Part shown: one piece after another, positions 51,419 through 59,100 of the stretch
Layout: each line of letters starts with the position of its first letter
How positions within the stretch are numbered: position 1 is the first letter of the stretch
From: Plumapathes pennacea
Lineage: Eukaryota > Cnidaria > Anthozoa > Antipatharia > Myriopathidae
Direction of reading: 5' to 3'
Assembly (NCBI GenBank): GCA_964036295.1
Contig: OZ038466.1
Span: 12,558,001 to 12,622,000 of the forward strand
DNA: 64,000 nt
Notes under the pieces: generated by a model
Databases searched by the model: none
What the model saw: the letters and a program-made list of their open reading frames with translations, nothing else
Told to the model about the DNA's origin: nothing
Position numbers and translations under genes: made by a program

Positions 51419-53082
51419 GAACAAGGGTTATCGGTACATCTAAGCAGATATTACCAACAATACGATAATCACAGATATTCCCTCGCCTTGATGCAGCAAG
51501 GGCCCTCTTTCTCCTTCTCCTCCCTCCCTTCCCCCTCCCCTGCGTCCCATTCCAAGCTAAGAGGGCCTGCTCGCAGGCTAATAGCAGCCTGTTCGAAATC
51601 AGACTTTTGAAAGTTCTTTGTGGTATATAGTACAGCACAAGGTGATTCAGTTCCAGCACAGCAATTCAAAGAATTTCAGCTCTGTTAGAAAACAGGACCG
51701 TAAGTATTTTTTTTTGAAAACTGATTGTTTATTTCTTCCAGGGAAATAAATCAGCACCCCCTGACCTCAACTACAGTGTTGTCCATCTACTATAAAACAC
51801 AGCACAAGGTGATTCAATTTTAGCACCTCAATTTCTCAAAAAGAACTTAGGCTCTGTTAGAAAACAGGGGCGTAAATATATTTTTCGGAATTTGATTGTA
51901 TATTTCTCCCGAGGAAATGAATCAGCACCCCTGACCTTAACTACAAAGGACAGTTAGTAAGTCACAGGAAACATGAAAACAAATAATTAAACAAACTTAA
52001 ATCGGATGTTAAAATTTTTGCGTGTGCATTCTGCTATGACTAAAAAAAATTAAGATGTTTTTAGCCTCAATCTCTTGGGGTTTCCTTTATGCCCTGTTTC
52101 CCTTAGTTCTTTGGATGACTGCGTCCCATTCCCAAACGAATGTGGTGTTTTGCTCCCCATCGTCTCCGCAGGCCACCGTTGTCGCTCTCTCGTAGCTGCA
52201 CTTCTCCCTGTCCATAATGAGTTTCGTTTGACTTTAGGAGTGATCACTTTCTGCACGTAATATTTGTCGTAGCTCTAAAAAGGTTCCATGACAGTGTCCT
52301 CTATTGCTGTTTACCCTCATCCTTCATCTTCTTCCTGGTGTCAAACAGTATCAGACGTCTCCGAAGAAATTAGGAGTTGAGATAGACCAATCATTAACTT
52401 GGAAGGAGCAACTAGACAAAATTTTAAAGAAAGCATCAGGGGGGATTGGAGCTCTAAGGCGTGTCAGACATCTTGTACCATATGATACATTACTCACGAT
52501 GTACAGCTCTCTTGTACTACCATATTTCGATTACTGTAGTTCAGTATGGGGAAGCTGTGCGAAAGGGATGGCTGACAAACTACAAACCCTCCAAAACAGA
52601 GCTGCCAGGGTGGTGACCCTCTCAAATTATGATAGGCGGTCAGTTGACATACTGGATGAACTTAAGTGGGATAATCTTGGGACACGAAGGTCAAAACAGT
52701 TAGCTATATTAATGTACAAGTCAATTAATGAAATTGTACCAAACTATTTGACCCAAATCTTTGATAGTACAAACTCTGTACATTGCTATAATTTAAGAAA
52801 CTCATCATATAACATATTTGTACCAAGACCACACACTGAAGCAGGGAAACATAGCTTCCATTATAGAGGGGCGGTTCTCTGGAATAACCTATCGAATGAC
52901 CTTAGAAGTCAGACAAATTTAAGATCCTTTTTAAATCTTTTATAAACATTCTAGTCTTCATAGTTTTTAATAGGACAATAACTTTAGGGAACTTTTATAC
53001 TAGGATATAATGTATTTTTTAGAATTTAAATGATTGTATGTAATACATTTTTAGCGTTTTGAAATATTTGCAATTATTATAA

Positions 53083-53123
<41 letters not shown>

Positions 53124-56100
53124 TATTATTATCAATTAGTATAGGTTATACGGATTTCTAGAAGAGCATTTGTATGAGAGAAATACCGTGTTTAAATAAA
53201 GATTTAATTAAAAATTTAAAAAAAAAAAAAAAAAATCATCAAACAGCAAGCGATGTACCAAAATTGCACCATACGTATATAAAATTCACTAATAATATAG
53301 CAGTGAATAACCCAACAGAGGCATGATTGGAAATTACAACATGTCCTGCAACCTCGTTCCCAGGGCCTTTTCCGGGGTGGCTGGGAAAAGACCCTGGCAT
53401 CGGCCGGTCACGTGACCATCAAACACCCGAAAATCTTGGGTGTAATAAATTAGCATGTTGTCGAGGCTCGTTATATAAAAACAACATGGCGGATTCGTCA
53501 GAGAAATTCACCGTGCTTCATCGGCTTGGATTGGCGTTGAACAGCGGAAACTTTCCTCCTTTTTGCTTGAAACCACTTCAGGTGAAGTGTTTTGATTACA
53601 TGTTGAAGGGCCACGATGTTATTGCCGTTCTTCCCACTGGTTTTGGCAAGTCGTTGCTGTTCCAGCTTCTGCCAAATTTCTTGCCTTTAAAAACGGACAA
53701 GAACATCGTGATAGTAGTGTGTCCTCTAAACTCTATTATAGAGGATCAGCTAAAAGCTTTGAAAGACAGAGGAGTGACTGCGGATGTACTGCAGCTTGCT
53801 AGCGACGAGTGGGAAACTTCGGAGAGTTTATTTGCTTCCGATGAAGACTGTTCACAGAGGTGTAATCAAAGCAGCAAGGCAGCTGTAAGCTCGCGAATTT
53901 GTAAAAGGACTTCATTTTGCGGAAGTAGCTATTTAATAGAACTGGCTCAATTCACCACTTCGTGGTGAACGCGGGCTTAAAAAAGTGTTATATAATAATT
54001 GAGAGAAAAGATTTATCGACGCGGTTTTCACGGGTCACGCGATCGCAGCACCCTTCAAATTAACAGATTGTACCTTTTTGACTCTAGAACTAAAAAGAGC
54101 ATGCCTGAAATAGTCCAGATGCCAATTTTGGATTGGTTGTGACTAAACTGGATACTCCAAAATCAGGTTTCCGAGAGGAAACTGGGACCGAATCAAAAAT
54201 TAAATTTTCGTCAGCTCGGACCGTGTTCCGAAAACAGTACGACAGTGACGTGGATGTTTTGAAAGTTCTTGGCGTGCATTAGCAAGTCCGTTCGGCTGGC
54301 CGCGTCGCGCCGCCTGTGTTCCTTTTACGCGGACGTGGAGGTCAACTCCAAATAAACCTGAAGCGGCTCAAGACATGGATCGAAACTGTAACCAGTCAAC
54401 AGATATACACAAGAAGCATTGTAGTCGTGAACGTGAAAAGGACAATATTACTGTTTATTTGTAAAATTTCGGGTCAGCCGGCCATTTGCTCGAGAACACA
54501 GTGGTTTTGGATGAAAATAACTTATCTATATAAGCATCCTAATACAGTAAATACGGATAAATTTAGGATACGTTGGAAATCTGATCCGTCTATAACTGTT
54601 GGCTTCTATGGGCTTCATTTTTGTTCCTATTTACTTATCATCCCTGTGGTGATTTTTGACATTTCGCACCTTCGAATGCTTAAATCTTAAATGCTTAAAT
54701 GTCTTATCATAGCATGTCTTATCGTGAATGCGTTCGTCTTCTGGAGTTAAGACTGATCAAGAAACAGGATCGTACACAAGCCGTTTCAATCGCTCTCCGG
54801 AACAGTTCACGCGGTGGGATTTTTTTATCTTCGGTGTCAATATTCATCTGTGCCAGATCAGCCATAACAAGCCTTTCTTCTTTAGTATTTTCTCCCCGAG
54901 CTAATTTTTTCCTTCTAAAACCTTTCCAGTGCCGAATTTTATTTGACTGTCTTCCGGTGTTAGATGCTTCAGACGAACCGAGGTCGTTTTTTTGTCCACA
55001 ATGTTCGTAAACGGCTCCGGACGACTTCGCCGATAACTCGTTGTTTTGGTCCCAGTCTTCACTCGGAAACCTGATTTTGGAGTATCCAGTTTAGTCACGA
55101 CCATTTTGGATTGTCTAGGCTTCATTTTGGCGAAGCAGGGGCAATTTGTTTTTTGGAGATTTGATAAGAGTTTGTATGCGGCCGCCATGTTAGTCGAACT
55201 CGGAACACAAAATGAAGTTGATCTGTGACTCAGCTTGATGTTTAGTTACTTCACATCTTTCGCAGTGCTAATTTTAAAATGTTGCGTGAAGGACCGATTT
55301 TAGTCGGCCGCGCGCGTGTACACGGCTTTGTTGTCACGGTATTCAAACGTCCATAGCTCCCGATAGATATTTTGTATCGACTCAGAATTTTGCTTTAAGT
55401 CTTAAGGCATGATAGTCCTGAACATATCAGTGTATTAGACTTATAGGATACGTTACTTTTGAGATGGCTTTTTATGACGTGACATGCAAACCAAGAATTG
55501 AAACACCTGATAATTTGCATACTGTATGAACTTGTAAACATTCACCGGAAATGGATATTTTTGGCCGAGATTAAATATCTTTTCGGCCTAGTATCTTCTA
55601 AGCCGTATTTACTGTCACTACAGAAATTTTGGCGGATACTAAACCAACGGCTTCAGATTTGTTTGCGATATATTAACGCCATCGGTGCCACTGATTGTTT
55701 GACCTTCATGGCACCGCGCCAAAATGTCACAATAACAACGCAAAACACAGTAGAGTGAAACACAACCAAACTCAATGGCCAAACAAACTTCGAACGCATG
55801 ACAAACCTTCAAAATGAGAACACGTTCCGAACAAAAAGATGGTCGCAACAACTACGACAACCTCTTGCTTTTAAACTGCGTTGTTCGACACACCCTGTTG
55901 CGCGACCTTCATCATGCCCAAATTTGGAAAACCGCAACTGCTTTATTTGGAAATCCATTGTTGACAACAGAGGGAATAGGGAAGTAGGGAAGTAGGGAAG
56001 TAGGGAGGTAGGGAAGTAGGGAAGGAAAGTGATTACTATACCTCGTAAATCCCACAAAGTGGAATTCGCGAGCTAAAAACGAAAGCAACGTGGACGAGGT

Positions 56101-59100
56101 GAAGCTAAAAAGTCCATCACAAAATCTGCTGAATGGAAATGTGCAAATTGTCTTCGCGCATCCAGAGGCTTTATTGAGCGAGGAAGGACGAGGATTGATG
56201 AACAGCGAAGTGTTTCAGAAAAATGTTGTTGCCTGTGCAATCGACGAAGCTCACTGTGTTGAGATATGGTAAGCAAGCCGTTACATTTCACGTGTATGAC
56301 GATTTCTGTAAATAATTTCAGCAGTGAAACTATATTTATTCGAATAACTATCTACAGTTGAACACATAGCCTGTGTACGGCCACCCTCTTGACTCGATGT
56401 GATCGTTATCTTTTTTGCCACTCCCAGGGTTGTGATCAAAAGAAATTAATCTTTACTCAAATGAGTTAGATGGAAATGGCTTGCTAATTCATCTTTTGGC
56501 ACACAAAGGACTCTGGTTGAGAGGGCCACTTTAAATACAACTGCTTAATACTATATATGAGTCAGGGAAAAACTGAAAATTTAACAGTAATTAAGCTGAT
56601 TGAAAAATGCTAACTTTTAACCCTTTTAACCTCTGTTAACCCTTTTTCTTCCCAGGGGTGAAAAATTCAGAACAGACTTCAAGGACTTATCAGCTGTAAG
56701 AGCCTTTTTCCCACAAATACCTATCATAGCCCTCACAGCAACTGCACCACCACATTTGTTGACAAAGTTGAAACAGAGTTTGTCTCTGAAAAGTGATTGT
56801 AAAACTGTTGCTGCAAACCCAAACTGTGCAAACATATACTTTGACAAGAGGTTACGGATGAGTAACCACAAAGTATATGAAAGCTATGACCAGATTCTGT
56901 TGCCCATCGCAAATGAACTGTCTGTTCAAAGGGAAAAGTATCCAATGACTATTATATACTTGAAACTTAAGTATTGTGGTTATGCTTATGGCTTGTTTGA
57001 AAGAATTTTGAAAGACAAACAGTATGTAGGGGAAACAAATGATCCAGCTGCAAGACTTTTTGCACAGTTCCATGCTCCCCAAACAAAGCGCATGAAGAAA
57101 AGTATAATTTCTGAGATCAAGAAAGAAACTTCACGAATAAGGGTTCTCTTTGCCACTTCAGCACTAGGCATGGGAGTTGATGCACCTTATATCACACACA
57201 TTGTACACATCACACCTCCAAGTAATATTGAATCATATATGCAAGAAACTGGACGTGCTGGGAGAACAGGACTTGCATCCCGAGCAACACTTTATTACAA
57301 TAATTCAGATATTGCAAATAACAAGGACTATGTGCAAGAAACAATGAAAGGCTATTGTAGATCACAAGAAACCTGCCTTAGAAAGCTTATTTTGGAATAC
57401 TTGGGGTTTCCCAGCATCAATCAAGAAAACTGCTGCTGTATTTGTGATGGAAAAGATCATTGATGGAATTGAATATATTCAGACAGAATCAGACCTGCCG
57501 GAGACCTATGGTGTATGGGATGAAACTTGCTCTTCTAATATTTTTTCTTTAATATCTAAATATGCTCCATTGTTTTGAAACAAGGCCTGTTTTGTTTCAG
57601 TGCCATAAAACCACAGGCTATGTGTTCAACTGTAGATAGTTATTCGAATAAATATAGTTTCACTGCTGAAATTATTTACAGAAATCGTCATACACGTGAA
57701 ATGTAACGGCTTGCTTACCATATCTCAACACAGTGAGCTTCGTCGATTGCACAGGCAACAACATTTTTCTGAAACACTTCGCTGTTCATCAATCCTCGTC
57801 CTTCCTCGCTCAATAAAGCCTCTGGATGCGCGAAGACAATTTGCACATTTCCATTCAGCAGATTTTGTGATGGACTTTTTAGCTTCACCTCGTCCACGTT
57901 GCTTTCGTTTTTACACCTCTGTGAACAGTCTTCATCGGAAGCAAATAAACTCTCCGAAGTTTCCCACTCGTCGCTAGCAAGCTGCAGTACATCCGCAGTC
58001 ACTCCTCTGTCTTTCAAAGCTTTTAGCTGATCCTCTATAATAGAGTTTAGAGGACACACTACTATCACGATGTTCTTGTCCGTTTTTAAAGGCAAGAAAT
58101 TTGGCAGAAGCTGGAACAGCAACGACTTGCCAAAACCAGTGGGAAGAACGGCAATAACATCGTGGCCCTTCAACATGTAATCAAAACACTTCACCTGAAG
58201 TGGTTTCAAGCAAAAAGGAGGAAAGTTTCCGCTGTTCAACGCCAATCCAAGCCGATGAAGCACGGTGAATTTCTCTGACGAATCCGCCATGTTGTTTTTA
58301 TATAACGAGCCTCGACAACATGCTAATTTATTACACCCAAGATTTTCGGGTGTTTGATGGTCACGTGACCGGCTGATGCCAGGGTCTTTTCCCAGCCACC
58401 CCGGAAAAGGCCCTGGGAACGAGGTTGCATGTCCTGTCCTTTGCTAAATTTAATTATGACGTATTATCAAGGATACCGACCACACATAAATTTCGAAACA
58501 TTTACCATGTTGTAAAAGATCGCCCAAAGTGCTTCTATTTACTTATTTTTTTTTCTTCTTCACGGCCCTGCGCCCTCAGGGCTTTGCTGATTCACATAGG
58601 CCATCAAACCCTTGAAATCTGCTTACGGCCCTTTTTATAACAGAGCTATTTTTTAAATTGCTTTGCTGGAACTCGATCACCTTGTGCTGTGTTGTATTGT
58701 AGGGGGGCAAAACTGTGTGCTGATTCATTTTCACGGGAGGAAGAGACAATCAAATTAAGAAAATTTTTTTTACGGCCCTGTTCTCTAACAAAGCTGAAAT
58801 GCTTTGAATTGCTGTGCTGGAACTGAATCACTTTATATAGTAGATGTGTTATAGATTAAAATTGGAATACCTTCCCGTAGTTTTAGAATCGAGTAAATTA
58901 GTGAATTGGAGTTCTTTTGTTGAGTTAGTATAGATGTTTAATAAAATTACATTGTTATTTATAGTGATTAACACTGAGGCCTTCCTCAAGAAATCTGAGT
59001 GATCTTGCTCTTAATTGAAGATCTTGTCTTAGGAAATGAAAAACAGCAAGTGCGAGCACTGCCATAGGCGTTCCAGCACCTTCTCTTCCTTCAGATCCTA

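What the first reader, a model, noticed from the sequence alone, without database searches (positions are those of the whole stretch)
53341..58435. RecQ helicase gene carried by an element with 0.8-kb inverted repeats and 7-bp target duplication
Seen: ATGTCCT flanks a unit whose GCAACC...GGTTGC ends extend into arms of about 815 bp that differ at only one of roughly 145 terminal positions compared. Each arm holds the promoter region and exon 1 of a RecQ-like helicase, and exon 2 is in the middle. Known: RecQ genes are host repair helicases and are not a standard part of cut-and-paste transposons. Inference: a mobile unit that duplicates a helicase, either captured or as its own replication factor. 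This may be a new element class in this genome.
Basis: partly seen in the sequence, partly recalled or inferred. Interest (0 to 1): 0.9.

Follow-up and report, generated by a model that had tools for sequence, protein, structure and literature searches.

The report
Helicase-carrying DNA transposon, defective AcademH-type copy
This is a damaged copy of a jumping gene that normally carries its own DNA-unwinding enzyme beside its likely cutting enzyme; elements of this kind are already described in print, and this copy has lost the cutting enzyme and gained a mirror-image copy of its other end.

Summary
Its ends are CAACC...GGTTG (53349-58427) and the target duplication is 9 bp (CATGTCCTG), not 7. 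The arms match in 816 of 819 columns. A nested 2.2-kb insert (53865-56073) splits the left arm and breaks exon 1 of the RecQ-like gene. Relatives in the same genome show the full plan: a RecQ-like helicase gene and, convergent on the other strand, a gene with a zf-AD finger and the Pfam domain DUF6589, probably the transposase. Of 38 RecQ places found, 23 lie within 8 kb of a DUF6589 place and all 23 pairs are convergent (random mean 0.1). A second, young family (three ~7.6-kb copies, 99.9% identical where compared) has 9, 9 and 8-bp duplications. Helicase-bearing DNA transposons with 9-10-bp duplications are known as AcademH (Kojima 2020, seen only through citing papers). The window unit is a defective derivative: its DUF6589 half is gone and an inverted copy of the RecQ end stands in its place. 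It is not a new class, and not a recent capture of a host gene. DUF6589 could not be compared with a reference Academ transposase, so the AcademH name is likely, not proven.

The parts
53340..53348 (.). left copy of the 9-bp target duplication, CATGTCCTG
53349..53864 (+). left arm, outer part; ends CAACC...; holds the start of RecQ exon 1 (ATG at 53486)
53865..56073 (.). nested 2209-bp insert between two TA copies, breaking exon 1; a different, repeated element
56074..56375 (+). left arm, inner part: rest of exon 1 (to 56268) and start of the intron
56269..56655 (+). intron of the RecQ-like gene, inferred from GT/AG and the reading frame
56656..57463 (+). exon 2 of the RecQ-like gene (helicase core, C-terminal part); frame ends early after a deletion of about 183 bp relative to the C1 relative
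57464..57588 (+). out-of-frame remainder of the helicase gene tail, 95% identical to the C1 relative
57590..57609 (.). 20-bp scrap of the DUF6589 half of the parent element (C1 relative, L019 5438-5457)
57612..58427 (-). right arm: inverted copy of the RecQ end, with an uninterrupted exon 1 facing away from exon 2; ends ...GGTTG
58428..58436 (.). right copy of the 9-bp target duplication, CATGTCCTG

Best explanation
The unit is a defective copy of an AcademH-type cut-and-paste DNA transposon. A complete element has inverted ends of tens to about 100 bp, a RecQ-like helicase gene that starts near one end, and a convergent gene (zf-AD zinc finger plus DUF6589) that starts near the other. The DUF6589 protein probably cuts the ends and inserts them with a stagger of about 9 bp; the helicase probably unwinds DNA during excision, integration or repair. 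In the window copy the DUF6589 half was lost and replaced by an inverted copy of the RecQ end, most likely by gap repair after excision with a switch of template to the element's other end. It could move only in trans. Shown: anatomy, duplications, gene pairing, relatives. Inferred: the transposase role of DUF6589, the role of the helicase, the gap-repair origin, and membership in Academ.
For: 9-bp duplication with CAACC...GGTTG ends in the window copy, and perfect duplications of 9, 9 and 10 bp in the three relatives of the family with both ends read. The C9 relative holds RecQ, zf-AD (E 1.7e-11) and a 622-aa open frame with DUF6589 (E 3.4e-31), convergent. 23 of 38 RecQ places pair with DUF6589, 23 of 23 convergent, random mean 0.107 and at most 2 in 1000 trials. 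A second family with 102-bp ends and very similar copies has duplications of 9, 9, 9 and 8 bp in its four long copies. Citing papers describe AcademH as Academ with a helicase and 9 or 10-bp duplications. A 20-bp scrap of the DUF6589 half remains in the window copy.
Against: No direct comparison with an Academ transposase was possible. DUF6589 has no similar solved structure and no fold was predicted. The primary AcademH paper was not held. XPG_I, the mark of the sister lineage AcademX by my recall, is not near any DUF6589 place (4 places). 15 of 38 RecQ places are unpaired and about as many DUF6589 places have no RecQ near. One long copy has an 8-bp duplication and two of seven mini-copies show none. 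RecQ_Zn_bind is below its cut-off.
Confidence: 0.8

Rival explanations
1. The DUF6589-RecQ elements form a superfamily of their own, outside Academ, that works in much the same way.
For: DUF6589 is not named in any paper of the library and could not be tied to an Academ sequence here; no XPG-bearing sister was found.
Against: The combination of a helicase with 9-10-bp duplications is what citing papers give for AcademH.
Confidence: 0.14
2. A local inverted duplication of a host RecQ gene, with the ends and the flanking repeat by chance.
For: The 0.8-kb arms occur only at this locus.
Against: Related ends with their own 9- and 10-bp duplications lie at C1:14.83 Mb, C9:8.33 Mb and C1:5.34 Mb; two of these also hold RecQ and DUF6589.
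Confidence: 0.02
3. A Kolobok element with RecQ (KolobokH or like Kolobok-1_CCri).
For: KolobokH encodes a RecQ helicase, and one rhodophyte Kolobok has it on the complementary strand (PMC9587614 passages).
Against: Kolobok makes TTAA duplications; here they are 8-10 bp without a fixed sequence. KolobokH is reported from fungi only.
Confidence: 0.02
4. A transposon that recently captured a host RecQ gene as passenger.
For: RecQ proteins are host repair helicases and the nearest solved chains are helicase Q1.
Against: RecQ pairs with DUF6589 in one fixed orientation across divergent families.
Confidence: 0.02

Closest known systems
AcademH (Academ superfamily; Kojima 2020, Mob DNA 11:15; not held, seen through citing papers)
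   Same: DNA transposon with a helicase and 9-10-bp target duplications; listed from animals and fungi by its title
   Different: Transposase homology not tested; the window copy lacks the second gene and has 0.8-kb arms made from one end
KolobokH and Kolobok-1_CCri (PMC9587614 passages)
   Same: DNA transposons that encode a RecQ helicase
   Different: TTAA duplications instead of 8-10 bp; KolobokH reported from fungi only
Foldback-like derivatives of DNA transposons (recalled)
   Same: Long near-identical inverted arms made of one element end
   Different: Here the arms hold an exon, and the relatives have short inverted ends

Membership tests
AcademH | 9 or 10-bp target duplication | tested here: met
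   Window family 9, 9, 9, 10 bp; second family 9, 9, 9 and one of 8 bp (read by eye)
AcademH | helicase encoded by the element | tested here: met
   DEAD and Helicase_C domains, RecQ proteins as nearest solved chains, inside the inverted ends
AcademH | Academ-type DDD/E transposase | not testable with these tools
   DUF6589 protein present in relatives, but no Academ reference sequence at hand; absent from the window copy
Kolobok / KolobokH | TTAA target duplication | tested here: not met
   CATGTCCTG, CAAAGCCTC, AGAAGGCTG, ACTTTTTTGT
AcademX | nuclease instead of helicase, 3-4-bp duplications | tested here: not met
   Duplications of 8-10 bp; XPG_I at 4 places, none beside DUF6589

The most novel reading that the evidence does not exclude
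The element's own helicase drives template switching at its ends, so that these transposons repeatedly produce mirror-image derivatives in which one end replaces the other: the window unit with 0.8-kb arms, and palindromes of about 60 to 120 bp made of little but two ends (C1:5.34 Mb in this family; C2:10.17, C4:10.71 and C6:3.43 Mb in the second).
Probability: 0.1. Interest if true: 0.5.

Novelty: new member of a known kind. Interest (0 to 1): 0.33.

Why it matters
It ties a Pfam domain of unknown function (DUF6589) to helicase-bearing transposons in one genome, and points to a young, very similar family (C1, C8, C11) on which the role of the helicase could be tested. The window copy itself is mainly an example of how such elements decay and rearrange.

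Tried and rejected
Local inverted duplication of a host gene: rejected, because related ends and duplications recur elsewhere, two of them with the same gene order. Kolobok: rejected on the duplications. Link to AcademX through XPG nucleases: 4 XPG_I places, none near DUF6589, so uninformative. Viral contigs encoding a close relative of the DUF6589 protein: none. PDB search with the DUF6589 protein: no match up to E 10; with a profile of 7 rows: one chance-level match, E 0.13. Not done: structure prediction, a tree of element RecQ against host RecQ genes, a search for empty sites, naming the organism, identifying the nested insert. The primary AcademH paper is not held; I rely on passages of PMC10045372 and PMC10799480. 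Literature searches.

Full report
What is there. The window holds an element from 53349 to 58427 with ends CAACC...GGTTG and a 9-bp direct repeat CATGTCCTG on both sides. The arms match in 816 of 819 alignment columns, with one mismatch and a 2-bp gap that is the TA duplicated by a nested insert (left arm joined across the insert). That insert, 53865-56073, splits the left arm inside exon 1; its first ~272 bases match 37 other places in a search that scored 40 of 1943 candidates.

The gene. Exon 1 (ATG at 53486, GT at 56269) and exon 2 (56656-57463, after AG) encode a RecQ-like helicase: DEAD E 1e-17, Helicase_C E 8.6e-14, RecQ_Zn_bind below its cut-off; the best solved chain is an ATP-dependent DNA helicase Q1, E 2.2e-40. 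Splice sites are inferred from GT/AG and the frame. Near the end of exon 2, 183 bp that lie between the matched stretches of the C1 relative are missing, and the frame ends early. The left exon 1 is broken by the insert and the right copy faces away from exon 2, so I see no intact gene here.

The parent. A search with 517 bases of the arm (8 of 8 candidates scored) gave 10 matches. Two are the window arms. The others lie at C1:14.83 Mb, at C9:8.33 Mb, in a 60-bp palindrome at C1:5.34 Mb, and at two places that match within exon 1 only (C1:38.12 Mb, C12:3.48 Mb). The C1 copy, 14832315-14836928, is 93-95% identical in its RecQ half and continues into a different second half on the other strand, up to an inverted end of about 60 bp. 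The C9 copy, 8326589-8332837, is about 73-82% identical and shows the second gene: a zf-AD exon (E 1.7e-11) and a 622-aa open frame with DUF6589 (E 3.4e-31), convergent with RecQ. Its RecQ exon 2 lies in two overlapping frames, so that gene looks damaged too. The remains of the DUF6589 gene in the C1 copy hold several stops. The four copies of this family with both ends read (window, C1:14.83, C9, C1 palindrome) have perfect duplications of 9, 9, 9 and 10 bp.

A wider set. The 42 RecQ matches fall at 38 places. For DUF6589 I used the 38 places and six more, chosen by eye because they were not in the first list; at least two of the six lie beside places already listed, so the 44 are not all distinct. 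23 of the 38 RecQ places have a DUF6589 place within 8 kb, 23 of 23 are convergent, the median gap is 989 bp, and random placement gives 0.107 pairs on average and at most 2 in 1000 trials. With alone it is 21 of 38, again all convergent. The window element and the C6:23.18 Mb copy are among the 15 unpaired; what the other 13 are (host RecQ genes, fragments) was not tested. 17 of the 38 DUF6589 places had no RecQ match within 8 kb.

A young family. Three copies of about 7.6 kb (C1:32500227-32507833, C8:4399283-4406891, C11:10407821-10415428) share ends of 102 bp and are 99.94% identical pairwise over the ~3.14 kb of each that I compared. A fourth, C6:23175717-23178034, is a 2.3-kb deletion derivative that keeps the RecQ frame and has no DUF6589 match. 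Their duplications, read by eye from the flanks printed, are 9 bp (C1), 8 bp (C8), 9 bp (C11) and 9 bp (C6). Of seven mini-copies of related ends with both ends read, two have perfect 9-bp repeats, two have 9 bp with one mismatch, one has 8 bp, and two have none that I can see. Two C3 mini-copies were fetched but not assessed, as an end was missing. One search scored 40 of 76 candidates.

Transposase role of DUF6589. It rests on its place inside the ends, on the pairing, and on repeated acidic motifs: GDQLT in the four sequences that cover it (C9, C1, L073, L072) and N-x3-D-x3-E in the eight that cover that part. No solved structure is similar in sequence. Which residues are catalytic is a guess.

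How the window copy arose. Between exon 2 and the right arm, the sequence jumps against the C1 copy, keeps a 20-bp scrap of the DUF6589 half (57590-57609), and then the inverted left end begins. This fits gap repair after excision with deletions and a switch to the other end as template; it is an inference. One mismatch between the arms, against about 5% to the C1 copy, suggests that the inverted copy is recent or was evened out by conversion.

Comparison with the known. Citing papers describe AcademH as an Academ lineage with a helicase and 9 or 10-bp duplications (PMC10045372 passages; PMC10799480 passages, which also cite the title 'found in animals and fungi'). The Kolobok lineages with RecQ make TTAA duplications (PMC9587614 passages). 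No paper in the library mentions DUF6589. I therefore file the window unit as a probable AcademH derivative; direct homology to an Academ transposase was not tested, and the novel case (helicase-driven mirror-image derivatives) is a speculation on the palindromes seen.

Noticed in passing
53865-56073: Nested 2209-bp insert between two TA copies; its first ~272 bases match 37 other places (lower bound) and it holds a 63-bp inverted repeat inside.
   Followed up: partly
C1:5337753-5337812; C4:10707019-10707139; C6:3427700-3427814; C2:10173706-10173816; C5:20896910-20896995; C5:6538656-6538757: Short palindromic units made of little but two element ends, several with 8-10-bp duplications.
   Followed up: partly
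C3:11352964-11916658: Repeated hits to the second family's end, spaced about 60-95 kb apart, as if a copy were carried by a large repeated segment.
   Followed up: no
52800-53236: Left flank looks like the 3' end of a LINE-type retroposon (coding-like text, ATT repeat, run of A); judged by eye.
   Followed up: no
54134-54196 and 55041-55103: 63-bp inverted repeat inside the nested insert, 90% complementary.
   Followed up: no
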